Assembly (NCBI GenBank): GCA_022824315.1
Contig: JAJEAC010000017.1
Span: forward strand, 1-33,588
Reading direction: 5' to 3'
Length of the DNA: 33,588 nucleotides
From: Silicimonas sp.
GTDB lineage: Bacteria > Pseudomonadota > Alphaproteobacteria > Rhodobacterales > Rhodobacteraceae
Shown one piece after another: positions 1,280-27,743 of this stretch (positions are counted from its first letter, which is position 1; every line of letters starts with the position of its first letter). The position numbers and the translations under genes were made by a program. The notes below the pieces were generated by a model. The model ran no database searches. It saw only the letters and a list, made by a program, of their open reading frames with translations, and was not told the origin of the DNA.

Positions 1280-2890
1280 TGACCGTGCCTGGCCCGCACG
1301 GCCATGGTGTCGGCCGACACCGTCCTGCGTTCGCTCATCCTGCATCTGCTCGCTTGCCTGTGCCGCCGTTCCGGCGGTCGCTGGGGCGAAGAGGTGGCAG
1401 CGGCCTGCCCGAAGCGCAAGCCAATTACGCATTCGATGCGAATTTCGTGACCAATGCGAGCCGGAGCGGATTCCCGAAGGAAACAGACTGCGGCCCGCAT
1501 GCATGAGCATCATCGATCCGCCCCCAATGTGCCGATCATTGCCGCCCGGTCCGACCTGTGTCAAGCCAGCCATCGCGGGCGCTTCGCTCACTCTTGTCGG
1601 GACGGACCCGAGGTTGCCATTCGATCGAGATGGAAAGGGGGCCGGTCGCCATCCGACAGAAAATCCCGGCCCCGCCGCTTTGCGAAAGCGGCTCCCGGCG
1701 AAGTCACATGGAGAGACCCTCGCCAGGAGCGAACGCAGCAAGCTAGCGCGTGTTGCCGATGTCAAGACGACCCCGGACATGCGAAGCTGTTCGCCACGGG
1801 AAAGGTCGGCGGGCATCCGGTCCTTTCACGACCGGAGGACGCCGGGCGGATGCCGATGACGACAACGACGATCAAGCACCCTGACGCCGCCGCGTGGATC
1901 TCACGGGCCATCACCGAGAACGGAATGGCCTTGCGGCAAGGCGTCAGGTCGTCGAGGGCAGACGGCGAGGACAACGCGCCGGCGGCCAGGTACGCGCTGA
2001 GGCCGTCCGCCGACAGCCGCGAGGATTGGCAGGCTTCGCCAGCCGATCGCTGTTTCCGGTTCCCGGCCCCAGACTCGCCGATTCCGTCCCGATCCTGTGC
2101 CGGACCGTCTTGAAGACGGCGTTTCTCGTGCCGCTCAGAGCCGTGTCCGTGCCTGATCGGTCGCAAGCGCAACGCGATAGCCGCCTCGGGTCCGCGAACG
2201 CCGGGATCCTGCCGTGAGGAACGGCTGGCGAGTTGACACGGTCGGGTGCGTACGGCTTTCCAGCCCGGGCCAGCCGGTCCGGCAGCGTCGCATGCTCCAC
2301 ATCCTCCGTTGCTGGTGCAGGCCAACCACCGGCCGCCCGCACCGGGGCACAAGCGGGCGCTTTCCCGAAGGAACGGGATTCCGGCCAATGCCGTGACGAT
2401 ATCCACGAGCGGCTGGTCCAGCTCGACATCTCCTTCGAGAGGCGCAGGCTGCCTGCATCGCTGCGGCCGAGCCTCCTTTCGCGCACCGAGGTGTCGCGCG
2501 GCGACGGACCTCATGACGGTTCGAGCCGCATGGAACAGGATGCTCGGAGCGCTGGTCCACGACATCCGGTCCGGGTGGTCACGGAAGACGGCAGATGCCG
2601 AAAGCTGCACGATGCAGCACAACGACGACAAAGTGGGGCTTTCGAAACACCCTCCGCCGGATGAAAGACAGTCGACGAGCTCTAACGAACCGTTTCAGTT
2701 CAACCCGTTACAGAAAGCGCAAGCGGCTCAACATCGCTAAGGACTCGAAGAATTTTTGGTTCCCGGAAACGTGGGCGTTACGAAGTTCATTTTCATCGCG
2801 GAAGGTTGAAAAACCGCAAGATTCGGGTCGCTCGCCCAACTTACGGGTGACAAACGGAGGCCTCACTTTCATCCCAAGGAGTAGCAGGCA
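1280..2890. other. 1.6-kb stretch without a recognisable gene
   Basis: Several open frames of 60-290 codons occur on both strands, but they overlap one another, are rich in Arg, Ser and Pro, and carry no domain or motif I recognise. They look like chance open frames in GC-rich DNA. The left part must hold the promoter of the peptidase gene and the right part (about 2700-2880, visibly more AT-rich) the promoter of the szn-like operon. I could not pick a convincing -35/-10 pair in either. Degenerate remnants of older genes cannot be excluded. Confidence 0.5.
2876..2881 (+). promoter_or_regulatory. ribosome binding site of the szn-like methyltransferase gene
   Basis: AAGGAG lies nine bases before the GTG at 2891. 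No ATG at a suitable distance competes with it, so the site fixes the GTG as the start. Confidence 0.75.
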
Positions 2891-3829
2891 GTGAACGTTG
2901 ATTTAGGACTTCGGTACGACCAAAGCACCAGCCGCCGTGTCGCGCCGTTGAACGACGGTCTCTTGGCCAAGCGGTCATTTCCCACATGGCATTTTGCCAT
3001 GATGAATGACGTTAGCCGTACCCAAGCAATCGAGCATTCGATCCGTGATGCTGGCGTGACCGACAAGACGGTTTTTGAGATCGGCACCGGGGCGGGACTG
3101 ACCGCGATGCTCTTTGCAAGGCACGGTGCACGACACATTTATACCTGCGAGGTAGACAGGCAGCTCTACGACGTCGCGCGCGAGGCGATCCGCACTAACG
3201 GCCTGGAGAAACGCATCACGATTTTTCCTGCGTCAAGTACCGAAATTGTCGAAGGCGGGGGGATCGATGTTGTCCCCGATGTGGTGTTCACCGAAACGCT
3301 GGATTGCGGCGTTGTCGGAGAGGGATTCTTCTCGATAGCCAACGACATCCACCGTATCGCCGGGCCGGACACGATCATTCTGCCGAGCTTGGTTGTGCAG
3401 TATGGGTATCTGGTCAACTCCGATGACATACGTGGGCTCAATGTCGCACACAACCATTCCGACCTGGACCTGTCGCCAATCAACGGCCACTCAACATCAT
3501 CATACTATCCGGTACGGCTGCCGGCTCATGCTTCGCGTTCGCTTTCTTCGCCATGCCAGATTCGAAACTACTCCTATGGTGAACCGCAGCACGCGACAGC
3601 GACCTTCAGAATCACTGCCTACCGTGACGGGATGTGCCACGGGCTGCTGAGCTACTTCCACGCCTTCTACGGAAATCATGTCATTTCCAACGACATTCGC
3701 GACGGCGGCCATTGGCACCAGGCGTTTCATCCGCTCGCAACGCCATTTCTGGTGAAGGCTGGGCACGTCTACGGGTTCAACCTCGGTGATGACGGTAGCC
3801 TTTCCGTTGCCGAAATCAAGGAGTCTTGA
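2891..3829 (+). CDS. PRMT-like (SznE-like) arginine N-methyltransferase
   Basis: The 312-residue product starts at a GTG. It has the order of motifs of class I protein-arginine-methyltransferase-like enzymes. WHFAMMNDVSRT (about 33-44) corresponds to the N-terminal helix motif, VFEIGTGAG (61-69) is the glycine-rich SAM-binding motif I, and Glu87 in CEVD is the ribose-binding acid. A double-glutamate loop, TETLDCGVVGEG with Glu135 and Glu144, resembles that of PRMT7, and GGHWHQ (272-277) sits where the THW loop belongs. The double-Glu loop is the part that holds a guanidinium group. Because the next gene encodes an SznF-like protein one base downstream, the best analogue is SznE of streptozotocin biosynthesis, which methylates free L-arginine to N-omega-methyl-L-arginine. 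Activity on a protein or another guanidine cannot be excluded. Base composition looks lower in GC than the neighbouring operons. Confidence 0.82.
   Translation: MNVDLGLRYDQSTSRRVAPLNDGLLAKRSFPTWHFAMMNDVSRTQAIEHSIRDAGVTDKTVFEIGTGAGLTAMLFARHGARHIYTCEVDRQLYDVAREAIRTNGLEKRITIFPASSTEIVEGGGIDVVPDVVFTETLDCGVVGEGFFSIANDIHRIAGPDTIILPSLVVQYGYLVNSDDIRGLNVAHNHSDLDLSPINGHSTSSYYPVRLPAHASRSLSSPCQIRNYSYGEPQHATATFRITAYRDGMCHGLLSYFHAFYGNHVISNDIRDGGHWHQAFHPLATPFLVKAGHVYGFNLGDDGSLSVAEIKES
3818..3823 (+). promoter_or_regulatory. ribosome binding site fixing the GTG start of the SznF-like gene
   Basis: AAGGAG, inside the last codons of the methyltransferase gene, lies seven bases before the GTG at 3831. It supports this start over an upstream ATG at 3786 in the same frame, which would overlap the methyltransferase gene by 44 bases. 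Confidence 0.75.
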
Positions 3830-3830
3830 C

Positions 3831-5264
3831 GTGTCCAAAAGCGAAATCCTGGATCCCCGCGTCACACGCGACTTCTCGACCTCCAATCACGATTTGTGCC
3901 GGGACGCGGTCCTGGCATTCTGCGACAGCCCGCTCTACCACGACAACGAGCACCGTTACGAAGAAAATTACTATGGCCGGAGGTTGCGGCCGCATGTTGC
4001 AAAGCATCTCGACTTTTCCCAGCCTTTGACGACAGAGCGCCTGGCGAGCTACGAGGCACTTTCGGCAAACCGCATTTTGTTTGCGATGAACGAGGTAGAT
4101 TTCCTCATGCTCCCCGGCGAAGCGCCTTGGGAGGAAGCCGAATTTCAGGCCGCCTATGCCGAGAGCCACGCTGCGGCTGCTCATGTAGGCATGCCGTATC
4201 TTGAGCGGTTCCTGTTCTCATTGCTGGAAAAGGAGATCCGCCTGTCGGACAACTGGTCGCTGCCCGCAGTGGAGGAATATTTCCGCAGCTATGCAACGGA
4301 GAGCCGTGAAGTTTCCTCCTTGCCATCAGCCGAAGCAATCCGTTCGTCCGGCAGTCCAGCAACGGCAGCCCGTGATTGGCTGGTGCAACTCGCTCCGGAC
4401 TTCCTGATCGAGTCCAGTCCCATGGCACGATATGCAAGCGGGAACTACGGCAGGCTTTCATCATCATTGTTCAAGATCATCATCGACGAGCTTGGGTACG
4501 GCGATTTCGAGCGCAAGCACTCGACCCTCTTCGAAAACACGATGCGATCCGCAGAGCTGAATTCGGTTCCGCATCGCTACTGGCAATATTACCTCAACGG
4601 CAGCCTGATGCTGGCGAACTACTACAACCGGATCACCCGCAACCGGAAATACGTTTTCCGGTACATTGGGGCGATCTACCTCGCTGAGACCGGATTCATA
4701 ACGAGCTGCCGGATATGGCGGGACGTCCTGAAAGAGGCATTGCCCGATCTTGACACGCGCTATTTCGACGAACACTGCCACATTGACATCGATCACAGCC
4801 GCATGGCCTTTGACGGGCTGGTCCGGCCCGCAATTGAAACCTATGGCATCTTTGCTGCCAACGAGATTGTGCGCGGATTCGAGGAAGCGTGCTGGATCGG
4901 CGAGTTTGCAGAGCAAGACTTCGTCCGGCAAACCTGCTGGAAGGATTCTGCCGAACGCAACCAGGATCGTTACCGACAGATCTTCGACAAGGTTCATCGG
5001 GCCTGGGAGACGGGAGAGATCACCAGGGACTGCCTGGATGAGCCAAAAGGAGAGTTGTCGATTACCCATACCCATGACGGGGACGAGCTCTGCCATGTAG
5101 TGAGCGGTGAAATGGAGTTCCTGAACGGATTTGAATGTTCCACAACGCTGCGCGGCGACCAAGGGATCATCATCGAGCACAACCGGCTTCACGGCGCCCT
5201 GATCCACTCGGAGCGCTGCATGTACGAGATATACAATATCGGCGACCTGAACAGATGGCTCTGA
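3831..5264 (+). CDS. SznF-like N-nitrosourea-forming metalloenzyme (diiron haem-oxygenase-like domain plus cupin)
   Basis: The product is 477 residues (SznF is 471). It has an N-terminal helical region (about 1-130), a haem-oxygenase-like diiron oxidase core (about 135-350) and a C-terminal cupin (about 400-477). Candidate diiron ligands are Glu194, Glu220, His230, Glu286, His315, Asp319 and His322. They lie at constant offsets (+5, then +4) from the SznF ligands as I recall them: E189, E215, H225, E281, H311, D315 and H318. Cupin candidates His413, His415 and His454 match H407, H409 and H448 at +6. In SznF the diiron domain hydroxylates two nitrogens of N-omega-methyl-L-arginine and the cupin iron rearranges the product to an N-nitrosourea. 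The same chemistry is inferred here. The gene follows the methyltransferase gene by one base and overlaps the Rieske gene by ten. SznF numbering is from memory. Confidence 0.88.
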   Translation: MSKSEILDPRVTRDFSTSNHDLCRDAVLAFCDSPLYHDNEHRYEENYYGRRLRPHVAKHLDFSQPLTTERLASYEALSANRILFAMNEVDFLMLPGEAPWEEAEFQAAYAESHAAAAHVGMPYLERFLFSLLEKEIRLSDNWSLPAVEEYFRSYATESREVSSLPSAEAIRSSGSPATAARDWLVQLAPDFLIESSPMARYASGNYGRLSSSLFKIIIDELGYGDFERKHSTLFENTMRSAELNSVPHRYWQYYLNGSLMLANYYNRITRNRKYVFRYIGAIYLAETGFITSCRIWRDVLKEALPDLDTRYFDEHCHIDIDHSRMAFDGLVRPAIETYGIFAANEIVRGFEEACWIGEFAEQDFVRQTCWKDSAERNQDRYRQIFDKVHRAWETGEITRDCLDEPKGELSITHTHDGDELCHVVSGEMEFLNGFECSTTLRGDQGIIIEHNRLHGALIHSERCMYEIYNIGDLNRWL

Positions 5265-5578
5265 AAACACTGCGCATGGAAGAGGGTGCGCGCATTCTGG
5301 TTGAGCTTCCGCATGAAAAGTCGCGGCTGCTGGTGCATGTTCGAGAAAATTCCTTGAGCGTGACAAGCGACATGTGCCGACATCGAAGTGGGCCAATCCA
5401 TTTGTGCTACACCGACGCGGCAGGTCACCGGCGTTGTCCGTGGCACGATCGTCGCATCACGGCGGAGGAGCGCCGCGACGATGTCTGCGCCGTTTATTGG
5501 TCGCAGCGCCAGATGCTGCTGCTGGTTCGCCGCGACGGCGATGCCACGCCTTGGCCGGTGCGAAAGTTAACGCCATGA
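5255..5578 (+). CDS. small Rieske [2Fe-2S] ferredoxin
   Basis: The 107-residue product starts at an ATG inside the end of the SznF-like gene (10-base overlap), which suggests translational coupling; I see no strong ribosome binding site. It has one complete Rieske cluster motif: Cys41-x-His43 and Cys61-x-x-His64, with PWHD around the second pair. There is no signal peptide or membrane helix, and no catalytic domain, so it is a soluble electron carrier of the Rieske ferredoxin type and not an oxygenase. Position suggests that it supplies electrons to the diiron domain of the SznF-like enzyme, which needs reduction to reactivate after each turnover. No dedicated ferredoxin reductase is encoded nearby, so a housekeeping reductase would be needed. 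The electron-donor role is inference from gene order. Confidence 0.85.
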   Translation: MALKTLRMEEGARILVELPHEKSRLLVHVRENSLSVTSDMCRHRSGPIHLCYTDAAGHRRCPWHDRRITAEERRDDVCAVYWSQRQMLLLVRRDGDATPWPVRKLTP

Positions 5579-6201
5579 TCGAAACCCTGATACCGTTCCT
5601 GCTCGCCGTTTTGGCACTGCTGCTCATTCCAGGTCCCGACATGGCTTTTGTCATGGCAAATGGCATCGCCTATGGCAGGCGCGGTGCGTTTTTTTCTGCG
5701 CTCGGAATCAGTGCCGGGGGGCTGGTCCTGGCAGTCGCCACCGCACTCCTCGTGGCAGCCACGTTCGCGATAAGTCCATCAGTCCTTCTCGCGCTGCAGC
5801 TTGCTGGCTGTCTCTATTTGCTCTACGTCGCTGCAATTACGATCATCCCTCGGACCGAGCCCGCAGACACTTTTGCGCTAGCGCCCACGTCCGGAAACAT
5901 GTTTCTGCGCGGAGTGGTTACCAATGTCTCCAACCCCAAGGCACTGATATTCTTCTCCGCGTTCATCCCGCAGTTCGTTCCTGACGATGCGACGGGGCCG
6001 GCACTCCATGCATTCCTGCTTGGTGCCTTGCTGTGTTTTGTCGGCGGTGCAGTGAATTTCGCAATCGGTGCATCAGGAGTCCTGTTTTCCGGTTTGAATC
6101 GGCTTGGCTTTCTAGGCCGTAGTTGGAGCCAGTGGATTGTCTTCACGGTCTTTGTCTCGATCAGCGTAGCCTTCACGGCACAGGCCGTAGTACGCGGATG
6201 A
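5575..6201 (+). CDS. LysE/RhtB-family amino-acid exporter
   Basis: The 208-residue product starts at an ATG that overlaps the Rieske stop codon (ATGA), so it is the fourth gene of the operon. It has about six hydrophobic segments and the LysE/RhtB signature near the N-terminus: LLLIPGPDMAFVMANGIAYG (about residues 15-34), followed by GRRGAFFSALGISAGG. A second family motif, NVSNPKALIFFSAFIPQF, lies at about 116-133. The length is normal for the family. LysE-type proteins export basic or neutral amino acids and derivatives across the inner membrane. In this operon the likely substrate is the arginine- or citrulline-derived end product, which would give both secretion and self-protection. Substrate choice is inference; the family is clear. 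Confidence 0.9.
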   Translation: MIETLIPFLLAVLALLLIPGPDMAFVMANGIAYGRRGAFFSALGISAGGLVLAVATALLVAATFAISPSVLLALQLAGCLYLLYVAAITIIPRTEPADTFALAPTSGNMFLRGVVTNVSNPKALIFFSAFIPQFVPDDATGPALHAFLLGALLCFVGGAVNFAIGASGVLFSGLNRLGFLGRSWSQWIVFTVFVSISVAFTAQAVVRG

Positions 6202-7233
6202 CGTATCGCCAGTCCCGGTCGCTCTCGGATGACTATGCGAACTTAACGGCCGGGCAGGAGTGGTCGTTACCGCGGTGAACGTTCCACCAAGACTTGATGG
6301 CACGGGCTGCCCGGACCGGCAAATGGTTCGAAACCCAAGAATACTGGCTTCCTGCGAATCGATGGACCTGAAATGCGGCTCATTTCCTTGGCCAGACGGA
6401 ATGTTTATAGCTGCCGCCGAGGCACCGTGTTGCGATAGTGTTGACAAAACGCAAGGACGGATCGAGGGTCGAAAAATATTATAATGATTACAAACAGTTA
6501 AGATATGTACAGTCGTCTCTTTTGAACGTCCGCAACGAGCGCAACTTCCGCACCCGCCTCCTGAAAACGGCCCAAGTTGCCGTGAATCGTGCATGGCGCG
6601 AAGCCCAACACGCAAACGTCAATCAACGCGATGATCTGACTTGGATTTCGTCCTTTCCCGCATCGCAAAATGCATACCTGGATCACTGGAACAAAGCAAG
6701 AAAAAGTCGGCCTGCGTGGTCCGTACGCGTGAAATGTTGCGTTTGTTGCTTGAACATGAAGCAGTCGGACTGATTCTGAGTTGATCAGGGTGGACCAACG
6801 CCATTTCGTCCGCTTGCAGACTTGGTTGGAGTTCACCTTGAGGGCTTGCAACGCCCTTGGCGATGCATTTGGGATCGCGCAGAACCTGAGGACATTGGTG
6901 TCCATGATCTGCACTGAGCTACGCCTCGCGAACGTCGGCACATGGCAAGATTCGACGATGACAAGAATGCTGCTCGACCACGTGCCGACACAGGCCGACG
7001 TACGGTGCCCCCATATTGCTCAGGATTCGATACGGAACGTCGCCTCGCCGATCACCGATTTCATTGGAAGCGATCTCTTGGCCGATCATGCCGCGATCTG
7101 CGTGGCTGCCAACAGGGTCGTGCAGGTTGCGGCGAGCTTTGCCCATGAAGTCGCGACAGATTTCTTGGGTCCTTTCAATTCCGAATTCGGAGCACGGTCA
7201 TGTCTCTGGCCAATTCTGTCGGCGGCACCATCC
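6202..7233. other. about 1 kb without a recognisable gene
   Basis: The stretch holds overlapping open frames on both strands (longest 174 codons on plus, 6781-7305, and 147 codons on minus, 6498-6941). None shows a family motif. Composition drops to notably AT-rich around 6470-6520. Together with the relic genes to its right, it looks like decayed DNA flanking the szn-like operon. I see no clear intrinsic terminator directly after the exporter gene. Confidence 0.45.
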
Positions 7234-7581: not shown

Positions 7582-8121
7582 GTCCTGGACTCCGGTCGAA
7601 GGGTTCCCTACGCGGCGCCTTGCAGCACCGACCAAGCTTCATGGCTTCATCAGACGGGTCGGACCGCAGGGCGGAACAGCGGCCGGAGTCCTTCAACACC
7701 ATGAAGGCTCGCTATGCGATCTCTCGGCGCAAGTCTTGCCGATCTGCCGCTCCGGATCCGTGACGGTCATGGCGATCATGTGTATCTTCAGTTATTCAAC
7801 CGTCTGCCGAGCCATCTGACGGGCGTCCTGGCACGTCGCGACTGCGCTTGTACCGGCACCTATTGATAACGGGGATCAGGGGAACCGGCGCACGGCCGCG
7901 AAGGACGTGTTTCAGGCGATCCGGTAGGGTCGCGGGACAGAAAATCCTGACTTGGTGCGACTCAATTTCTCGGCACTGATGATTGAGGAAGGGGCGGCCT
8001 GCATCTTCCAGGCGGTGGACAATCTCGCCACGATGACCCCAGATTGTCGGGAAATCTACAAGGTGGACACAGTCACCGTTAGGTTCACGGCTAGATATAA
8101 CCAGTGAGGCACTGCGACTAC
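7582..8121. other. intergenic stretch, no recognisable gene
   Basis: No supported gene is visible. A plus-strand frame of about 50 codons just before 8107 reads like protein (SALMIEEGAACIFQAVDN) but has no start, no family match and ends at a stop at the edge of the next relic. It may be another remnant. Confidence 0.35.
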
Positions 8122-9450
8122 ATGACTGGTCCTTTCTCGAACCTTGCCTTTGGCACGTCCTTTGTCGCACAGGCCGCGTTCTTGACGGCGGTCGGGCTGC
8201 TGATAGTGCCGTCGACGCTTGTGGCTTACCGGATCGGCGGCGTTTCGTCGTGCAAGGTTCCGGATCCCTTGCCGGTGCTGAAGATGGTGGCCTATGTAGT
8301 CCTTGCCTGGCGCGCCGAAGCGTTGTTGGGCGGCATGCCGCGAAAGCCGGTGATGGTCGGCCTGGATCTGGGGCGCATGTTGCGCCTGGTGCCGATGGCC
8401 TTCGCCGCGACCACGTTGCAGATCGCGATGCTGACATCCGCATTTTTCGTCTTTGCTGCAGCGTTTACGCCGCTCCACCAGTCAGTCATTCCAGACCTGT
8501 TGCCCGAGAAAGAGAGCTTAACCAGTACTCTGGTTTGGCCGCGGATCGCCCATGCGCTGGAAACGGTTCTGAGGGCGGCGATTGCCGCTGCCTTGCCGGG
8601 CGTGATATGGGCTGCGCAATTGTTCCTTGCCGTCGTGCTTGCGGTCGTCGGGTTGATCCTTGCACTCTTGGCCACCCGATTCCCTGCCAGAGCCTTCGGT
8701 GACGGCACGAAACCATTCCTGGAGCGCGCGGTCATCGGTTTGAGGATTTACTGCTACACACCCAGGCTTCGCGGCCTCAATTCTCCTGAACCTCGCGCTG
8801 TCGCTGGCAATGGTCTGGGTGCTGGTGAACTCGATGATTTTCGCCGGACTGTGTCAGGGCGATGCGGAGAAGCACTTTCTGATCCTGATGGCGATTTGCG
8901 GGCTGGGCGCTGCGTCGGGGCGGGCTTGGCGCCAACCATGGTCATACGAATGGGTGAGCGCATGACGATGATGTTGGGTGCATTCCGCTTTGCCGCGCTC
9001 GGACCCGTCATCCTCTTTCCTTTGACTTTCGCCAGCTTGCTGGCGTTCAAGGCAAGCTTCGGGCGGACCTCTTCACTGGTGTCGACCCCGGGCGGTCTTG
9101 CGGTCACGCACTCAGCGCCTCAACAGGATTGCCCGGCGGCATTCGCCGTGCGGTTGTCGCCCAGCCACGCCGGTTGGCTGTGGGCCTATCCGCTGGCGGG
9201 TTGGCTGGGCACCGTCGCCGGACTGGAACCAGCGCTGATTTTCTTCTCCGGGCTGGCAGCTGCGGCGGCCTTCGCGGCACCCAAGGCTTTGCCAGCCGAT
9301 GATCCGATGCAACGCACGCACGGGCACCCGGTTCCGGCGAAGGATCACCTGCATCAGCGCCACATTCCCGCGTGCGGTCCGGGCTACGCACACCGCCACG
9401 ACATCCACATCGGTGACCTGCATCGGAGGTGGGTCGGGTCAACAGCCTGA
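8122..9450 (+). pseudogene. frameshifted MFS transporter
   Basis: From the ATG at 8122 the frame reads as an MFS transporter related to those with the pattern LPRKxxLVGxDLxR: KMVAYVVLA, MPRKPVMVGLDLGRMLRLVP, FTPLHQSVIPDLLPE and GLRIYCYTPRLRGL are easily aligned with it. At about 8770 the homology moves to the +1 frame, which reads LNLALSLAMVWVLVNSMIF and continues to GLGAASG at about 8920. It then returns to the first frame (LAPTMVIRMGERMTMMLG), so two compensating shifts scramble about 50 residues. The first 30 residues are also diverged. The C-terminal half still shows SHAGWLWAYPLAGWLGTVAG and a His-rich tail (HGHPVPAKDHLH, HRHDIHIGDLHRRW) typical of this subgroup, which hints at a metal-linked substrate. 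A functional altered transporter is unlikely. Assembly error is the main alternative. Confidence 0.72.
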
Positions 9451-12070: not shown

Positions 12071-13192
12071 ATGGGAGACGAGATCCGGATCGGCATTGCG
12101 GGTGCAGGCTCGATCGCCTTCGGAACAGCGGCGCTGGTTGCCGGGAACGGGCATGACCCGATGCTCTGGTCACCTTCTGGCACTGGAACAACGGCGCTGG
12201 CGGACGGAATTCCGTTGACCGCAGAGGGAGCGCTCAACACTGTTCTGACGCCGCGCATCGCCGCGACAGCCGGGCAACTGGCCGCGGAGAACGATTGCCT
12301 CATGATCGCTCTTCCCGCCTATGGCCATAAACCAGTGATGGACGCGCTTGCGCCAAAGGTCCGGGACGGTCAGCACGTGATCGTCTCGTCTCACGCCTCG
12401 CTTGGCGCGATCTTTCTGAGTCAGCAACTGACGGCGCGAGGCATTCGAGCCCCTGTGACCGCCTGGGGCACGACCGCGGCAACCGGGCGACGGCAGTCGC
12501 CGTCGCGGGTGCGGATCAACACGATTCGCGAACTGATCGACTTCTGCACCTTGCCAGAAGATCTTTCGGGTGAGGCTCTGACGCTTTGCCAGCAACTGTT
12601 CGGGGATCGATTCCAGTCGCGAGACGGGTTGCTGGCGATATCGCTCTCGAACCTGAACCCGCAGAATCACATGGGTATCGCACTGGGCAACATGACCCGG
12701 ATGGAACGCGGCGAGGACTGGAGCCAGGGCCAGAACGTCACCCCCAACATCGGTCGCCTGCTTGAAGCGCTGGATGCCGAGCGGTTGGCAATCGCGGAGG
12801 CACTGGGGGTGAAAGTGCGCACGATATTTGAGCATTTCCACTTGTCCTTCCATGTGCCTGTGGCCTCGATCTCGGAGATGAACCAAGAGATGCACGCCGT
12901 GGGAAACGGAGGTACCGGACCCGCGACGGCAGACAGCCGTTACGTCACCGAAGATGTGCCTTACGGGCTGGTGCTGACCGCCGCGCTTGGCCGAATGGCG
13001 GGTCGACCGGCGCTGCTGCACGAAGCAGGCATTCGCATATTCTCGGCCATGTATGGCCGGGACTTCATCGCCGAGAACGCGCTTCTCGATGCTATCGACT
13101 TGTCGAGCCATACGCTCGACGACCTGAAGGAGGCTGCGAAGACCGGCCTTCTGAACCACCCGGATGCCGCCATGGCGTCCGCTGTTCAATAG
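12071..13192 (+). CDS. opine (octopine/nopaline) dehydrogenase family protein
   Basis: The 373-residue product starts at the ATG at 12071, 56 bases after the previous gene. It begins with a Rossmann dinucleotide motif, IRIGIAGAGSIAFGTA (about 5-20), and contains LSNLNPQNHMGIALGN (about 193-208). The NPxxH histidine there is the catalytic residue of the octopine/nopaline dehydrogenase family (PF02317). Length and layout are normal for that family. These enzymes reversibly condense an amino acid with a 2-oxo acid using NAD(P)H. In an operon with an importer and oxidising enzymes, oxidative cleavage of an imported opine-like secondary amine is more plausible than synthesis. Direction and substrate are inference. 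Confidence 0.83.
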   Translation: MGDEIRIGIAGAGSIAFGTAALVAGNGHDPMLWSPSGTGTTALADGIPLTAEGALNTVLTPRIAATAGQLAAENDCLMIALPAYGHKPVMDALAPKVRDGQHVIVSSHASLGAIFLSQQLTARGIRAPVTAWGTTAATGRRQSPSRVRINTIRELIDFCTLPEDLSGEALTLCQQLFGDRFQSRDGLLAISLSNLNPQNHMGIALGNMTRMERGEDWSQGQNVTPNIGRLLEALDAERLAIAEALGVKVRTIFEHFHLSFHVPVASISEMNQEMHAVGNGGTGPATADSRYVTEDVPYGLVLTAALGRMAGRPALLHEAGIRIFSAMYGRDFIAENALLDAIDLSSHTLDDLKEAAKTGLLNHPDAAMASAVQ

Positions 13193-13219
13193 CCAACCAA
13201 ACAGAAAATGGAGAAAGAA

Positions 13220-14329
13220 ATGACCAATCCGGCTATCGACCGTCGCCGTTTCCTCGGCACCACTATCGTTGGGGCGGCCATGCTGGCAAGCCCGGCCTAT
13301 CTGCGCCGCTCCTATGCCCAGGGCAGCGGCGAGGTGAACGTCTGGACTTACAACCAGTTCGTTCCCGACGCCTTCAAGGAGCAGTTCGAGGCCGATACCG
13401 GCATCAAGGTGAACGTCCGTCTAGTCGACGATCAAGGCAAGCAATTCAACCTCCTGGCCGCCGAAGCACCGAATCCGACTGTAGATGTCGTTACCGTCGC
13501 CGGTCATCGGTTCCTTCAGTTCATCGACAGCGAGTTGTTGGCACCGATGGACACCAGCCGACTGTCGAACTGGGGAAATATCAATCCGACCTTCTCCGAA
13601 AGCGACTGGGCCACGATCAACGGCAACAAATGGGGGGCACCGATCCTCTCAGGCATGGAGGTGTTGTCCTACAATACCGAATTCGTTTCCGAAGACGAGG
13701 CCCAGACCTGGGACACGCTGTTCAGCGAGAAATACAAGGGCCAGACCGCCTACATCATCCAGGACATGATGTCGATCGTAATGCTGATGATGGGTTATGA
13801 CGGCAATATGGTCGCCTACTTGGACGATCCGGACGAGGCCGCGCGAATCGTCGAGGAAGCGAAGAACTTCCTGATCGAGAAAAAGCCGCTTGTTCGCAAG
13901 TACTATGACGGCGGTGCGGAGGTGCAGCAGATGTTCATCAATCAGGACATCGTTCTGGGGCATTCGTGGAACGGTCCGGCTGCCGCATTGATCAATGATG
14001 GCTTCCCGTTGGGCATGTCTATCCCGAAGGAAGGTTCGTATGGCTTCGTGTACACGCTGAACATTGCCAATAACGGTCCGAATCCGGACAACGCCTATAC
14101 GCTTCTGAACGCGCTCTTGGCGTCCCCCGAAATCGGTGCCTCCATGACCAAGGCGTCGGGCTTCATCTCGACATACAAGGATGCCTCGCAATACCTGACC
14201 GAGGCCGAGAGGCGGTCCACCTCGTTCCCGGAAGAGCAACTGGCCAACCTGCAGTTTTTCCGCGCCGAGGCGAATGAGATGAAATACGGCCTCGTCGACC
14301 CTGCTGTGGAGGCCGTCAAGGCGGCCTGA
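13220..14329 (+). CDS. periplasmic polyamine-type substrate-binding protein, Tat-exported
   Basis: The product is 369 residues. The ATG at 13220 is chosen because GGAG at 13210-13213 lies six bases before it; an in-frame ATG at 13208 would contain that site. The N-terminus has a twin-arginine signal (RRRFLG, then a hydrophobic stretch ending near SYAQG), so the protein is exported folded. The rest matches the PotD/spermidine-putrescine binding class: VNVWTYNQFVPDAFKEQFEA followed by a long two-lobed domain. It is the specificity component of the ABC importer encoded by the next three genes. Substrate is unknown; the neighbouring opine dehydrogenase points to an opine, a polyamine or a related amine. 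Confidence 0.87.
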   Translation: MTNPAIDRRRFLGTTIVGAAMLASPAYLRRSYAQGSGEVNVWTYNQFVPDAFKEQFEADTGIKVNVRLVDDQGKQFNLLAAEAPNPTVDVVTVAGHRFLQFIDSELLAPMDTSRLSNWGNINPTFSESDWATINGNKWGAPILSGMEVLSYNTEFVSEDEAQTWDTLFSEKYKGQTAYIIQDMMSIVMLMMGYDGNMVAYLDDPDEAARIVEEAKNFLIEKKPLVRKYYDGGAEVQQMFINQDIVLGHSWNGPAAALINDGFPLGMSIPKEGSYGFVYTLNIANNGPNPDNAYTLLNALLASPEIGASMTKASGFISTYKDASQYLTEAERRSTSFPEEQLANLQFFRAEANEMKYGLVDPAVEAVKAA

Positions 14330-14341
14330 GGTCCTGACACG

Positions 14342-14368
14342 CCGCACGCCCCTCACCGGGGCGTGCGG
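14342..14368 (+). other. strong intercistronic hairpin after the binding-protein gene
   Basis: An uninterrupted 11-bp stem (CCGCACGCCCC paired with GGGGCGTGCGG) closes a five-base loop (TCACC). No T-run follows, so it is not a classical terminator. Its place between binding-protein and permease genes suggests mRNA stabilisation or partial attenuation, which would raise binding-protein output over the membrane parts. Confidence 0.75.
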
Positions 14369-14456
14369 GCCGAAACTGATACCTCCGTTTCCACCCATTG
14401 GAACCCACCCTTTCACCGAGGGCGCGCGGGCCGACCCGACCTGCTAGGGGAGCGTC

Positions 14457-15440
14457 ATGAATTCAGAAGTCGCATCTGCGTCTGAACCACGGGGCGCACC
14501 GGGGGAGGGCCCTGCGGCGTTTTGGGGCCGAGCGACCCGTTGGGGCCCCTACAAGGCCTTGTTGACGTTCGTTTACGCGTCTCCGCGGCGTCAGTTCTTC
14601 ATTCTCGCCGCGCTGCCGGTCCTCTGGGTCCTGACGCAGCATCTCGGACCAATGCTTCAGATGCTCCGTGTCAGCCTGACCGATGCCTATCCGGTTGCCC
14701 AGGATGTCCAGACCCAATTCACGCTGGAACATTACGGGCGGTTCTTCGGGGACAGGCTGTTCTGGATGCCGTTCTTCCGGACGCTCGTCTTCGCGAGCAC
14801 CTTCACCCTGGCGACGCTCATCATCACATACCCCGTCGCGTATTTCCTTGCCCGGCATGTCAGCCGAAAGAACCAGCTCCTGTTCCTTCTATTGCTTCTC
14901 GTTCCCTTCTGGGTCGGCGAGATCGTGCGGACCTACGCCATCATGATCCTGTTGGGCAATACCGGAGCGGTTAACCTCGCACTGAAATGGATTGGGCTGG
15001 TCGATCGGCCGATCCCGTTCATGTATACGAGTTTCTCGATGGGAGTGGGCATCGTCTATCTGACGGCGCTTTACATGCTGCTTCCGCTCTATTCGGCACT
15101 GGAAAAGCTTCCGCAAAGCTACTGGGAAGCGGCGGCCGATCTCGGCGCAGGCGCCTGGACCAGGTTCCGGCGCGTGACGTTGCCCTTGACGATCGAGGGT
15201 ATTTCTTCGGGGTGTACGCTGGTCTTCCTTATCTCGACGGGATTCTACGCGACGCCGGTGCTTCTTGGCGGCCCCTCGACCACGGTCTTTGCCGAGACCA
15301 TCGCGGGTTTTTTCCACGTCGCAGGAGACGAATGGCCCACTGGCGCGGCCTTTGCGACGATCATGTTCCTTGCGGCACTGGCGATTTCAGCCGTCTTTCA
15401 GCGGTTGATGTACATGCTCAGAAAAGGCGACACCAAGTGA
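14457..15440 (+). CDS. ABC transporter permease, PotB-like
   Basis: This 327-residue membrane protein has about six hydrophobic segments and the EAA-type coupling loop, SYWEAAADLGAGAWTRFRRV at about 221-240, which docks on the ATPase. That loop places it in the polyamine/2-aminoethylphosphonate class of permeases. The N-terminal 40 residues are an extra cytoplasmic segment rich in Gly and Pro. GGGGAG shortly before the ATG at 14457 is a good ribosome binding site. It overlaps the second permease gene by four bases (GTGA) and forms the transmembrane channel with it. Confidence 0.9.
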   Translation: MNSEVASASEPRGAPGEGPAAFWGRATRWGPYKALLTFVYASPRRQFFILAALPVLWVLTQHLGPMLQMLRVSLTDAYPVAQDVQTQFTLEHYGRFFGDRLFWMPFFRTLVFASTFTLATLIITYPVAYFLARHVSRKNQLLFLLLLLVPFWVGEIVRTYAIMILLGNTGAVNLALKWIGLVDRPIPFMYTSFSMGVGIVYLTALYMLLPLYSALEKLPQSYWEAAADLGAGAWTRFRRVTLPLTIEGISSGCTLVFLISTGFYATPVLLGGPSTTVFAETIAGFFHVAGDEWPTGAAFATIMFLAALAISAVFQRLMYMLRKGDTK

Positions 15441-16228
15441 CCCGCAATTCGCGAATCTTCCTCTCCTGCGTCTACTGGGCCTTCGTCCTCTATGTGTTTG
15501 TACCACTGATCCTGATGATTCTCATGGGATTCAAGGATTCGAAGTTCATTGGGTTTCCGATCAAGTCCTGGACGCTCGACTGGTACCTTGGTGTGTTCGA
15601 GGATTCCGAGGTGATCTCGGTCTTTGGCTATTCGATCGCGATCGCAGTGTTCGCATCCGTCATTTCAATCGCAATTGGGCTTTGGATCGCGGTGTTGCTG
15701 GAGGGCCGGAAGTTCTGGGGCCGTGCGACGGTGTTCGGTCTAGCCATCCTGCCAGCACTTGTGCCCGGCATCATCTCGGCAATCGCGTTCCGAATCTATG
15801 CCCGACTTCTTGGCATCGAACCGGGGATGTTCGCGATAATCTGGGCCCACGCGGTCCACAATGTACCCTTTGTGGTGCTGGTTGTCATGGCGCGTCTTTC
15901 CACCCTGCCGAAGAGCCAGATCGAGGCGGCGCGCGACCTGGGCGCCGACCCGCTGGTCGCCTTTCTCAGGATCACTTTGCCCTATCTTACCCCCGCCATC
16001 ATGGGCGCCAGCATCTTCTGCCTGCTGCTCAGCTTCGACGACTTTGTCCGCTCGTTCTTCCTAGGCAGTTACGAGCCGACCCTGCCGGTTCTGATCTTCG
16101 CCAAGCTGCGCTCGGGCATGTCGCCGGAAATCAACGCAATCGCCACTGTCGCGTTGGTCCTGACTGCCGTCCTCGGCATCTGGGCCGAGCGCTATGTGCG
16201 CCGTACGAACAAGGATTCCGGAAGATGA
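15437..16228 (+). CDS. ABC transporter permease, PotC-like
   Basis: The 263-residue product starts at a GTG overlapping the stop of the first permease gene. It has about six membrane segments and the coupling loop QIEAARDLGADPLVAFLRIT (about residues 158-177). Second permeases of spermidine/putrescine-type importers have this length and pattern. A much longer upstream extension in the same frame runs inside the previous gene and is rejected. It overlaps the ATPase gene by four bases (ATGA). Confidence 0.9.
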   Translation: MTRNSRIFLSCVYWAFVLYVFVPLILMILMGFKDSKFIGFPIKSWTLDWYLGVFEDSEVISVFGYSIAIAVFASVISIAIGLWIAVLLEGRKFWGRATVFGLAILPALVPGIISAIAFRIYARLLGIEPGMFAIIWAHAVHNVPFVVLVVMARLSTLPKSQIEAARDLGADPLVAFLRITLPYLTPAIMGASIFCLLLSFDDFVRSFFLGSYEPTLPVLIFAKLRSGMSPEINAIATVALVLTAVLGIWAERYVRRTNKDSGR

Positions 16229-17310
16229 CCTCGCAGCCTCCCGTCGTCAGCATCGAAGGGGTCTCGAAAACCTTCGGAAATGCGGTCGCGCTTGAGCGGA
16301 TGGAACTGGATATCGCGGAGGGCGAGTTCGTCACCTTCCTGGGACCCTCGGGGTGCGGCAAGTCGACGACGTTGCGTCTTCTCGGCGGGTTCGAGCGTCC
16401 GGACACCGGACGCATAATGCTCGAGGGCAAGGACGTGACCCGGCTTCCGCCAGACCGGCGCAACGTGAACATGGTGTTCCAGGACTATGCGCTGTTTCCG
16501 CACATGACGGTTCTGCAAAACATGGCCTTCGGACTGGAGCTGACGGGCATGAGCCGAAGTGCCATCAAGGCCCGACTGAAAGAACTGATGGCGTTCCTCG
16601 AGCTTGCCGACTATGGCGACCGATATCCTGGCCAGCTTTCCGGCGGCCAGCGCCAGCGCGTCGCCTTGGCACGTGCACTTGCGCTTGATCCCGCGCTTCT
16701 CCTGCTCGACGAACCGCTTGGCGCGCTGGACGCGAAGCTTCGGGGACAGGTCCAGCAAGAGCTAAAGTCGATCCAGAGGCGGACCGACAAGACCTTCGTT
16801 TTCGTCACCCACGATCAGGAAGAGGCGCTGACCATGTCCGACCGCATCGTGGTGATGAATGCCGGGCGCGTCGAACAGGACGGCACTCCTGAAGATCTCT
16901 ACATTCACCCCGCCAACCGCTTCGTTGCGGAATTCATCGGCGAAACAAATCTGATCTCGGGCGAAGTCCGCAGTCAGGAGGGTGAAGAGGTGGTGATCGA
17001 ATGGCACGGATCGACCTTGCGCGGTCACAGGCGGCCAGAAGACCCGCATCCCGAAGGACATGTCACCGCCTCGGTCCGGCTGGAACGACTGGAGTTGCAC
17101 TGTGAGAAGCCCGCAAGGGTCAACGCGGTTCAGGGCCGGGTGGTCGGCAAGACCTTTCTTGGCAGCCGGATGATGGTGGACCTGCTCGTCGAACAGGCCG
17201 CGGGTGCAACTCTGAAGGCCTATGTCAATATGGAAACGGGTCAGGCGGTGGGCGACGCGCCGGTGTGGATCTGTTGGGACGCCGACAACATGGCCGTCTT
17301 GAGCGACTGA
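16225..17310 (+). CDS. ABC transporter ATP-binding protein, PotA-like
   Basis: The 361-residue ATPase has Walker A GPSGCGKST (40-48), a Q-loop in VFQDYALFPH, signature LSGGQRQR (about 138-145), Walker B LLLLDEP (158-164), and the switch His in FVTHDQEEA. A C-terminal TOBE-type regulatory domain follows (about 240-361), as in PotA/FbpC-type ATPases. It powers the importer made with the two preceding permeases and the Tat-exported binding protein, and is the last gene of the eight-gene operon. Confidence 0.93.
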   Translation: MTSQPPVVSIEGVSKTFGNAVALERMELDIAEGEFVTFLGPSGCGKSTTLRLLGGFERPDTGRIMLEGKDVTRLPPDRRNVNMVFQDYALFPHMTVLQNMAFGLELTGMSRSAIKARLKELMAFLELADYGDRYPGQLSGGQRQRVALARALALDPALLLLDEPLGALDAKLRGQVQQELKSIQRRTDKTFVFVTHDQEEALTMSDRIVVMNAGRVEQDGTPEDLYIHPANRFVAEFIGETNLISGEVRSQEGEEVVIEWHGSTLRGHRRPEDPHPEGHVTASVRLERLELHCEKPARVNAVQGRVVGKTFLGSRMMVDLLVEQAAGATLKAYVNMETGQAVGDAPVWICWDADNMAVLSD

Positions 17311-26714: not shown

Positions 26715-27743
26715 GGGGCGGACGCCCCGAAGGCCCATGCTGACCAGCACGAGAAAGGAGACGACCATCCGATCTATTTTGCACCATACGTTTCCGGGAC
26801 AGGACCGGACGGGGGACGCAGCCCCTGGACCTGAAGATCGATCCGGGGTCGAGGAGGACGGGCATGGCGCTCGTCCGGAATGACGGCGAGGTCCTGTCCC
26901 TTGCCGAGATCGAGCACAGGGGAGAGAGGGTTCGGAAGTCGATGCAGCAACGGGCCGGCTATCGGCGGCGGCGGCGAACCTGAGATACAGGAAGGAGAGG
27001 TTCCTGAACCGGCGTTCCGGGAGACGGCTCCCGCCCTCGCTGCAGTCACGGGTCGACAACGTGCTGTCCTGGACGGAACGGTTCAGGAGGCTTGCGCCGG
27101 TGACCGGGATCCGGTGCGAGACGGTGCGCTTCGACACGCAGGCGCTGGAGAGCCCCGGCATCGGGGGCGCGGAGTAACAGCAGGGGACCCTGGCGGGATA
27201 CGAGGTCCGGGAGCATCTGCTCGAGAAATGGGGACGCAAATGCGCCTACTGCGGCGCCACGGGGACGCCCCTCCAGATCGACCACGTCTCCGACCGAAGG
27301 CCCGGGGCGGGTCCGACCGTGTCTCCAACCTGACGCTCGCCTGCCCCTCCTGCAACCGGGCCAAGGGATCGCCGACGGTGGAGAGCTTCCTGGCCAGGCG
27401 GCCCGGACGTCTCCGGAGGGTTCTCGCCGAGGCCGGGACGCCGCTTCGCGACGCCGCGGCGGTCAACGCCACCCGCCGCGTCCTGTTCGAGGAGCTGAAG
27501 CGGACCGGCCTTCCCGTCTCCGGCTTCCCGGTCGGGCACCTGATGGCGGGGACGTCCGTCCGGGGCTTCCGTACGGGGGACATCGTGCGCGCGGTCGTGC
27601 CGTCGGGAAAGAGGCGGGGCGTCCATTCGGGCCGCGTCGCGGTTCGGGCCTCGGGATCGTTCAACGTCCAGACGGCCGGCGGCACCGTCCAGGGCGTTTC
27701 CCACCGGCACTGCCGCATCGTCCAGCGCGGCGACGGGTACTGA
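26715..27743 (+). pseudogene. degenerate IscB (RRXRR/HNH) nuclease of an OMEGA-type element
   Basis: IscB homology runs across all three plus-strand frames. A PLMP-like start (GRPEGPC) carries an in-frame stop. RuvC-I follows as LKIDPGSRRTGMALV (from about 26831), ending with RRRRR at about 26976. The frame then shifts to NLRYRKERFLNRR and the bridge-like RLPPSLQSRVDNVLSW, and reads to a TAA at 27175 where relatives have Tyr in GVEYQQG. It continues as TLAGYEVREHLLEKWGRKCA and the HNH part (CAYCG, PLQIDH), shifts once more near 27290, and ends with NLTLACPSCNRAKG, AAVNATRRVLFEELKRTGLP and the C-terminal GFRTGDIVRAVVP, SGSFNVQTAGGTVQGVSHRH. The RuvC-III catalytic region between the last two blocks is missing. 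The gene is inactive. IscB proteins are omega-RNA-guided nucleases ancestral to Cas9. Confidence 0.88.

What the first reader, a model, noticed from the sequence alone, without database searches (positions are those of the whole stretch)
2891..6201. Compact szn-like operon: SznE-like, SznF-like, Rieske ferredoxin and LysE exporter
Seen directly: four plus-strand genes with a 1-base gap, a 10-base overlap and a 4-base overlap. Established: SznE methylates L-arginine and SznF turns the product into an N-nitrosourea in streptozotocin biosynthesis. Inferred: this alphaproteobacterium makes an arginine-derived N-nitroso or other N-N bonded compound. None of the tailoring genes expected for streptozotocin itself (sugar transfer, ATP-grasp ligases) is present, so the product is probably a simpler amino-acid-like molecule.
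Basis: partly seen in the sequence, partly recalled or inferred. Interest (0 to 1): 0.95.

Follow-up and report, generated by a model that had tools for sequence, protein, structure and literature searches.

The report
Minimal nitrosourea operon with its exporter
Four tightly packed genes in an alphaproteobacterium encode relatives of the two enzymes that build the DNA-damaging nitrosourea core of the drug streptozotocin, plus an electron-carrier-like and an exporter-like protein, and together they likely make and export a small nitroso amino acid; the ligase that goes with these enzymes in most of the other bacteria examined was not found in its genome, so this would be a stripped-down form of the pathway.

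Summary
The SznF-like protein matches crystallised SznF over nearly its whole length (381 bits), keeps all 11 catalytic residues checked, and falls on SznF's side of a branch (SH-aLRT 99) that shuts out homologues without an MT neighbour. All four genes are under purifying selection against a 95%-identical copy with unrelated flanks: a mobile, maintained 3.86-kb cassette. Two new points. (1) Outside the window type, 7 of 7 MT+SznF loci carry an O6-methylguanine-repair gene (Ada/AGT) within 10 kb, against 0 of 10 genomes or records whose SznF-like gene has no MT beside it; 4 of the 7 add a PF09859 DNA-damage oxygenase. This points to a DNA-methylating N-methyl-N-nitrosourea. (2) The window type has no linked AGT as far as its contigs reach, no match to the ATP-grasp ligase in 4 of 4 assemblies, and a LysE-family exporter instead. 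Best reading: arginine is methylated, turned into N-hydroxy-N-methyl-N-nitroso-citrulline and exported unassembled. Chemistry, product and exporter substrate are untested; the MT lineage differs from the Pantoea/Streptomyces type. New variant of a known kind.

The parts
2395..6252 (+). Mobile cassette: the stretch shared with L001 (title Rhodobacter sp.) at 93.3% identity while the flanks on both sides are unrelated; G+C 57% against 62-65% outside
   Evidence: blastn; composition (in L001 the right flank has 56% G+C, like the cassette; the left 67%); shared with L005 from 2749 on
2891..3829 (+). SAM-dependent arginine methyltransferase-like protein (PRMT family), predicted to make N-omega-methyl-L-arginine
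   Evidence: PDB best match PRMT7 (4m36) E 2.7e-21; E135 and E144 (double-E loop) and H274-W275-x-Q277 invariant in 10 of 10 aligned sequences, window included; dN/dS 0.15-0.18
3831..5264 (+). SznF-like protein: N-terminal domain, HDO diiron domain, C-terminal cupin; predicted N-hydroxylase and N-N bond-forming enzyme
   Evidence: SznF structures 6m9r, 6m9s, 6vzy matched over residues 18-475 with 381 bits; 11 of 11 catalytic residues kept; clade with SznF; dN/dS 0.12-0.16
5255..5578 (+). Small Rieske [2Fe-2S] ferredoxin-like protein, predicted to reduce the diiron centre of the SznF-like enzyme
   Evidence: PF00355; C41, H43, C61 and H64 invariant in 13 of 13 aligned sequences, window included; next to SznF-like genes with and without the methyltransferase
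5575..6201 (+). LysE/RhtB-family exporter, predicted to export the amino-acid product
   Evidence: PF01810 71.6 bits; present in the 3 window-type loci that reach this far (window, L001, L031 in pieces), no match in the 7 other MT+ loci; dN/dS 0.20-0.32

Best explanation
The four genes form a mobile, selectively maintained szn-type operon that likely converts L-arginine into the free amino acid N-delta-hydroxy-N-omega-methyl-N-omega-nitroso-L-citrulline and likely exports it. Inferred steps: the PRMT-like enzyme methylates the guanidine of arginine; the HDO domain of the SznF-like enzyme hydroxylates two guanidine nitrogens with O2 and electrons from the Rieske protein; the cupin domain rearranges the result into an N-methyl-N-nitrosourea; the LysE-family protein pumps it out. 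Shown: gene order, homology, intact catalytic residues, shared clade with SznF, purifying selection, no match to the ATP-grasp ligase in the assembly. In relatives outside this type the same enzyme pair stands beside O6-methylguanine repair genes, which fits a product that methylates DNA; here export would take over part of the self-protection.
For: SznF match 381 bits over residues 18-475; 11 of 11 HDO and cupin residues kept (ten of them named in PMC11705231, E189 recalled); on SznF's side of a branch with SH-aLRT 99; 26 of 54 close SznF-like clusters share a contig length with an MT cluster, and 32 pairs in all lists stand against 0-2 at each of 40 shifted lengths; Ada/AGT within 10 kb in 7 of 7 MT+ loci of other types and in 0 of 10 MT-less genomes or records; PF09859 beside 4 of those 7; ATP-grasp homologue in 0 of 4 window-type assemblies but linked in 6 of 7 others; dN/dS 0.10-0.32.
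Against: No AGT, AlkA or PF09859 gene is linked in the window type as far as its contigs reach (2.9 kb left and 27 kb right in the window; 1.5 and 6 kb in L001); the two AGT genes of the assembly lie on other contigs and it has no PF09859. The MT is of another lineage than the Pantoea/Streptomyces-type partners, so arginine as its substrate is a family inference. The SznF product is described as breaking down without enzymes to nitric oxide and other products (PMC11705231), so the exported form could differ. LysE specificity cannot be read from sequence; NCBIfam subfamily cut-offs are not reached. The assembly is 94.6% complete, so a missed ligase gene is not excluded.
Confidence: 0.62

Rival explanations
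1. A nitric-oxide-donor operon: the nitroso product is made to break down and release NO as signal or defence, and the LysE protein exports the residue or the methylarginine, so DNA methylation plays no part.
For: The SznF product degrades non-enzymatically to NO (PMC11705231 passages); no AGT, AlkA or PF09859 gene is linked in the window type.
Against: MT+ loci of other types are linked to O6-methylguanine repair in 7 of 7 cases, which fits methylation; no NO-handling or NO-sensing family appears among the Pfam matches of the 24 window ORFs scanned.
Confidence: 0.15
2. The product is a building block that is finished by genes elsewhere in the genome or to the left of the contig end, giving a larger nitrosourea natural product.
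For: The contig ends 2.9 kb to the left of the operon; six of seven other MT+ loci carry an ATP-grasp ligase, and streptozotocin itself needs further steps (PMC11705231).
Against: No match (E up to 0.001) to that ligase in any of four window-type assemblies; L001 holds the cassette between flanks unrelated to those of the window, so no neighbouring gene is shared.
Confidence: 0.15
3. A diazeniumdiolate (graminine-type) metallophore precursor pathway as in gramibactin or chalkophomycin.
For: Those pathways use SznF homologues (PMC10849742).
Against: The window protein keeps all HDO ligands checked, unlike L022 (Tistrella) and L056; a methyltransferase is present, and no NRPS family appears among the 24 window ORFs scanned.
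Confidence: 0.03
4. A decaying, non-functional remnant brought in by transfer.
For: Patchy distribution: 1 of 7 genomes in the genus of G1366; among 248 genomes drawn from the window's family only the window's own has a full match, the one other match being partial at 35%. L031 shows a rearranged copy.
Against: Four intact frames and dN/dS 0.10-0.32.
Confidence: 0.03

Closest known systems
Streptozotocin (szn/stz) gene cluster of Streptomyces achromogenes, enzymes SznE and SznF
   Same: SznF-type HDO-cupin enzyme with all 11 catalytic residues checked, on SznF's side of a branch with SH-aLRT 99; partner gene for an arginine methyltransferase-family enzyme.
   Different: No match to the ATP-grasp ligase of other MT+ loci and no sugar-transfer gene recognised; no AGT/AlkB-type repair gene in view (PMC9040887 credits streptozotocin self-resistance to AlkB and AGT homologues); a LysE exporter instead; MT of another lineage than the Pantoea/Streptomyces type.
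MT-SznF-Rieske clusters of other proteobacteria (Methylobacterium indicum plasmid pVL1_1, Vreelandella neptunia, Xenorhabdus mauleonii, Pantoea dispersa plasmid)
   Same: MT, SznF-like and Rieske genes together; SznF-like 61-70% identical to the window's, Pantoea 35%.
   Different: They carry Ada/AGT (4 of 4), ATP-grasp (3 of 4, not Xenorhabdus), PF09859 (3 of 4, not Pantoea) and no LysE-type match.
SznF homologues of diazeniumdiolate metallophores (GrbD, ChmM)
   Same: SznF homologues; the chalkophomycin-type cluster keeps the three cupin histidines (PMC10849742 section 6).
   Different: That chalkophomycin-type cluster lacks many HDO ligands (all but one of 48) and sits with NRPS/PKS genes; the window has intact HDO ligands and an MT, and no NRPS gene was recognised.
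Azospirillum-type SznF-Rieske-amino acid permease loci (L020, L032, L053-L055)
   Same: SznF-like enzyme with intact ligands in the three checked (L020, L032, L053), Rieske partner, amino-acid transporter.
   Different: No methyltransferase match in the stretch; SznF-like protein outside the SznF/MT+ clade.

Membership tests
SznF (N-nitrosourea-forming HDO-cupin enzyme) | Architecture aligned over nearly the full length with SznF | tested here: met
   381 bits, residues 18-475
SznF (N-nitrosourea-forming HDO-cupin enzyme) | HDO ligands E189, E215, H225, E281, H311, D315, H318 | tested here: met
   7 of 7 kept, (E189 as ligand position recalled, the others)
SznF (N-nitrosourea-forming HDO-cupin enzyme) | Cupin H407, H409, H448 and Y459 | tested here: met
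   4 of 4 kept
SznF (N-nitrosourea-forming HDO-cupin enzyme) | Same clade as authentic SznF, apart from MT-less homologues | tested here: met
   SH-aLRT 99, quick tree of 43 rows; inside the clade the window lies in a 19-row group next to, not within, the SznF subgroup
SznF (N-nitrosourea-forming HDO-cupin enzyme) | Converts N-omega-methyl-L-arginine to the N-nitrosourea | not testable with these tools
   needs purified enzyme
SznE (arginine methyltransferase partner) | PRMT-family methyltransferase with double-E and HW loops | tested here: met
   motif names recalled
SznE (arginine methyltransferase partner) | Gene partner of an SznF-type gene | tested here: met
SznE (arginine methyltransferase partner) | Same sequence lineage as the Pantoea/Streptomyces-type methyltransferases | tested here: not met
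   separated by a branch of 1.36, support 100; SznE itself was not available, so its own place is untested
SznE (arginine methyltransferase partner) | Methylates free L-arginine once | not testable with these tools
   needs purified enzyme
Full streptozotocin-type cluster | ATP-grasp ligase as in other MT+SznF loci | tested here: not met
   0 of 4 window-type assemblies; the window's assembly is 94.6% complete
Full streptozotocin-type cluster | Linked alkylation repair (AGT, AlkB-type) | tested here: not met
   none within the contig; the left side is cut at 2.9 kb
Diazeniumdiolate (GrbD/ChmM-type) pathway | NRPS/PKS context; in the chalkophomycin type a degenerate HDO domain | tested here: not met
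   (24 ORFs)

The most novel reading that the evidence does not exclude
A four-gene mobile cassette is a complete, self-contained genotoxin pathway: it makes a naked N-methyl-N-nitrosourea amino acid from arginine and relies on an amino-acid exporter, not on a linked DNA-repair gene, for self-protection, so that DNA-methylating nitrosoureas would be a transferable, minimal trait of alphaproteobacteria.
Probability: 0.35. Interest if true: 0.8.

Novelty: new variant of a known kind. Interest (0 to 1): 0.6.

Why it matters
SznF homologues are known to be widespread, but very few N-nitroso products have been isolated (PMC10849742). This cassette narrows a predicted nitrosourea pathway to four genes with one obvious substrate and one obvious exporter, so product, electron donor and self-protection can be tested directly. 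The link between the methyltransferase and O6-methylguanine repair (7 of 7 loci outside the window type against 0 of 10 MT-less genomes or records) would give a simple genomic marker for which SznF-type clusters make DNA-methylating compounds.

Tried and rejected
The MT found no relative in viral contigs and the SznF-like protein none in phage records. A sigma-70 scan found no promoter-like site and no terminator excess. The frames left of the operon inside the cassette have no Pfam match (window 2595-2891 and L001 618-1211). Weak Ada matches in L033, L036 and L067 read as AraC-type regulators (judged by eye), and PF01035 finds no AGT in those stretches of G165 and G340 (G1506, the genome of L067, was not in that search). 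The diazeniumdiolate reading was dropped on residues and context. The third protein search, with the Pantoea methyltransferase, was meant to reach SznE; it reached Streptomyces relatives but none labelled SznE. Ng et al. 2019 and two McBride et al. papers are not held. Print searches: (30 of 402 papers listed); judged from titles and abstract starts and from the passages named below, none shows an MT-SznF-Rieske-LysE operon or the Ada link outside streptozotocin.

Limits of the counts. The seven MT+ loci are not seven independent cases (L002 and L003 are both Halomonadaceae), nor are the ten MT-less ones (several share a genus code). 'MT-less' means no MT match in the stretch fetched. No actinobacterial context was read. 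Not followed: plasmid hits H6-H8 (partial) and H11-H16 (MT only), and the weak or partial matches in genomes that are not named in this report. In one search, 26 loci were examined: 9 with an MT in the MT+ groups other than L031 and L005 counted with them as window type, and 15 MT-less ones. Rows left out of the tree: P0013 (the same protein as L018) and most of the 120 listed proteins (24 used). Rows left out: most MT proteins without a contig match (33 used).
Full report
What is there. They encode a PRMT-family methyltransferase (MT; 55 of 56 PDB matches are named arginine methyltransferases, best PRMT7, E 2.7e-21), an SznF-like protein (the three SznF sequences in the PDB at 381 bits over residues 18-475), a Rieske protein (PF00355) and a LysE-family exporter (PF01810).

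The SznF-like protein. Residues whose mutation abolishes or arrests SznF, or that are named in its mechanism (ten in PMC11705231 passages; E189 as the extra ligand is recalled), are kept in 11 of 11 cases: seven in the diiron HDO domain, four in the cupin. In a quick maximum-likelihood tree of 43 rows the window protein, all nine MT-linked loci and authentic SznF lie on one side of a branch with SH-aLRT 99, and the nine homologues without an MT neighbour on the other; 24 rows have no label. Inside that clade the window lies in a 19-row group (support 100) of proteobacterial and Bacillus proteins, next to the SznF subgroup of actinobacteria, so it is a cousin, not SznF's nearest neighbour. Long branches meet at the outgroup, so the deep rooting is unsure.

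The methyltransferase. Motifs of arginine methyltransferases (E135, E144, H274-W275-x-Q277) are invariant in 10 of 10 aligned sequences, window included (motif names recalled). A match of contig lengths pairs 26 of 54 close SznF-like clusters (within P0001-P0055) and 6 of 65 more distant ones with an MT cluster: 32 pairs in all, against 0 to 2 at each of 40 shifted lengths. The lists were capped at 120 rows each, so these are lower bounds, and one or so of the pairs may be chance. In the MT tree 31 of the 32 rows of the window-type group are SznF-linked (support 88), and this group with 18 others is separated from the Pantoea and Streptomyces-type MTs by a branch of 1.36 with support 100; the label 'SznF-linked' needs nine changes on the tree. 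SznE itself was not available, so orthology to SznE is not shown, and a separate recruitment is possible.

A maintained, mobile cassette. Window 2395-6252 matches L001 (record title Rhodobacter sp.) at 93.3% while both flanks are unrelated. A third copy lies in L005 (Boseongicola sp., cut by the contig end), and a partial, rearranged one, without the MT in view, at the end of a contig of G288, which belongs to another family of the same class. G+C is 57% in the cassette and 62-65% outside it in the window; in L001 it is 57% against 67% on the left but 56% on the right, so composition alone proves little. dN/dS between window and L001 is 0.15-0.18 (MT), 0.12-0.16 (SznF-like), 0.10-0.15 (Rieske) and 0.20-0.32 (LysE). 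The cassette is rare: of 248 genomes drawn from the window's family only its own has a full match, the one other match being partial at 35%. The window's class is Alphaproteobacteria, since the Tistrella plasmid record has the length of a contig of G260, listed as same class.

The DNA-repair link. Around MT+SznF loci of other types a pattern appears. The tblastn tally finds an Ada/AGT protein within 10 kb in 7 of 7: Vreelandella neptunia L002, Halomonas L003, Xenorhabdus mauleonii L004, Methylobacterium indicum plasmid L018, Pantoea dispersa plasmid L019, L030 (G204; SznF-like identical to the Candidatus Hepatincola protein) and L066 (G1453). For six of these the genome-wide PF01035 search confirms it; G1453 was not in that search. 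The four whole genomes among them (G204, G1363, G1364, G1365) hold 1 to 4 such genes each, so closeness by chance is unlikely. Of the ten MT-less genomes or records (G051, G165, G340, G983, G984, G1035, G643, G665 and the plasmids of L020 and L021), none has one within 10 kb of the SznF-like gene. PF09859, which Pfam describes as acting on damaged DNA, is linked in 4 of the 7 (five copies), while the two copies in MT-less genomes lie on other contigs. The Methylobacterium plasmid adds AlkA. Since N-nitroso groups are precursors of DNA alkylating agents (PMC10849742) and streptozotocin self-resistance is credited to AlkB and AGT homologues (PMC9040887 passages), the MT+SznF pair most likely makes DNA-methylating compounds.

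What is different here. The window type has no AGT as far as its contigs reach: window 2.9 kb left and 27 kb right, L001 1.5 and 6 kb; L005 and L031 are cut. Its assembly has two AGT genes on other contigs and no PF09859. A translesion-polymerase-like gene (PF00817, PF11799) lies at 27851-29509, far outside the cassette; it is a DNA-damage gene, but not of alkylation repair. The ATP-grasp protein linked in 6 of 7 other MT+ loci has no match (E up to 0.001) in 4 of 4 window-type assemblies; Xenorhabdus mauleonii has only a weak, unlinked one. Instead, a LysE-family gene overlaps the Rieske gene in window and L001 and is present in pieces in L031; no LysE-type match occurs in the 7 other MT+ loci.

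Mechanism. From published SznF chemistry (PMC11705231, PMC13108848, PMC10849742), the likely path is arginine to N-omega-methyl-arginine (MT), two N-hydroxylations at the diiron site, then rearrangement at the cupin iron to N-delta-hydroxy-N-omega-methyl-N-omega-nitroso-L-citrulline. The diiron site needs electrons; the Rieske gene overlaps or adjoins SznF-like genes with and without the MT, which fits an electron donor to SznF, not a tailoring enzyme. An amino-acid exporter fits an amino-acid product. Every chemical step here is inferred.

Literature. Crooke et al. (PMC10849742; outline, abstract, passages, sections 4 and 6 read) found 426 SznF homologues, with one network cluster of SznF plus 135 proteins in szn-type clusters; whether the window type is among them cannot be seen. 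PMC13108848, PMC11705231, PMC9040887 and PMC9570651 were read in passages only. Ng et al. 2019 is known here only through these papers.

Verdict. The finding is sound and its reading is supported. It is a new variant of the szn-type pathway: smaller, mobile, with an exporter and without the ligase. The repair link is the stronger general result; the free nitroso amino acid is the bolder prediction.

Noticed in passing
L018 (Methylobacterium indicum plasmid pVL1_1) 736-3586: An alkylation-repair island (PF09859 oxygenase, Ada, AlkA) on a plasmid typed as conjugative, near MT-SznF-Rieske-ATP-grasp genes.
   Followed up: yes
L020, L032, L053, L054, L055: SznF-like, Rieske and amino acid permease without a methyltransferase match; metal ligands intact in the three checked (L020, L032, L053). 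A different, uncharacterised N-N product is likely.
   Followed up: partly
L021, L034, L035: SznF-like, Rieske, a gene of unknown family and an ATP-grasp gene, without methyltransferase match and without linked AGT.
   Followed up: partly
L030 (G204): The full MT-SznF-Rieske-MFS-ATP-grasp-AGT set in a 1.3-Mb genome whose SznF-like protein is identical to that of Candidatus Hepatincola sp. Av.
   Followed up: partly
window 12071-17310: Octopine/nopaline dehydrogenase-family gene followed by solute-binding protein, permease and ATPase genes (Pfam matches): perhaps an opine-related uptake set, outside the cassette.
   Followed up: no
window 27851-29509: Y-family (impB/mucB/samB) translesion-polymerase-like gene with a DUF6504 domain, next to an HNH-domain frame at 26880-27743.
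   Followed up: no
window 8104-9450: MFS-like frame with only a partial MFS match under the Pfam cut-off; perhaps a decayed gene right of the cassette.
   Followed up: no
L003 9986-11428: SznF-like frame of a Halomonas MAG is interrupted by one internal stop.
   Followed up: no
L031 1-1534: Rearranged, partly inverted copy of the SznF-Rieske-LysE end of the cassette at a contig end; perhaps an assembly artefact.
   Followed up: no
P0158, P0211, P0213, P0215: Relatives of the methyltransferase carry the NCBI name 'ribonucleotide-diphosphate reductase subunit beta', apparently a misnaming.
   Followed up: no
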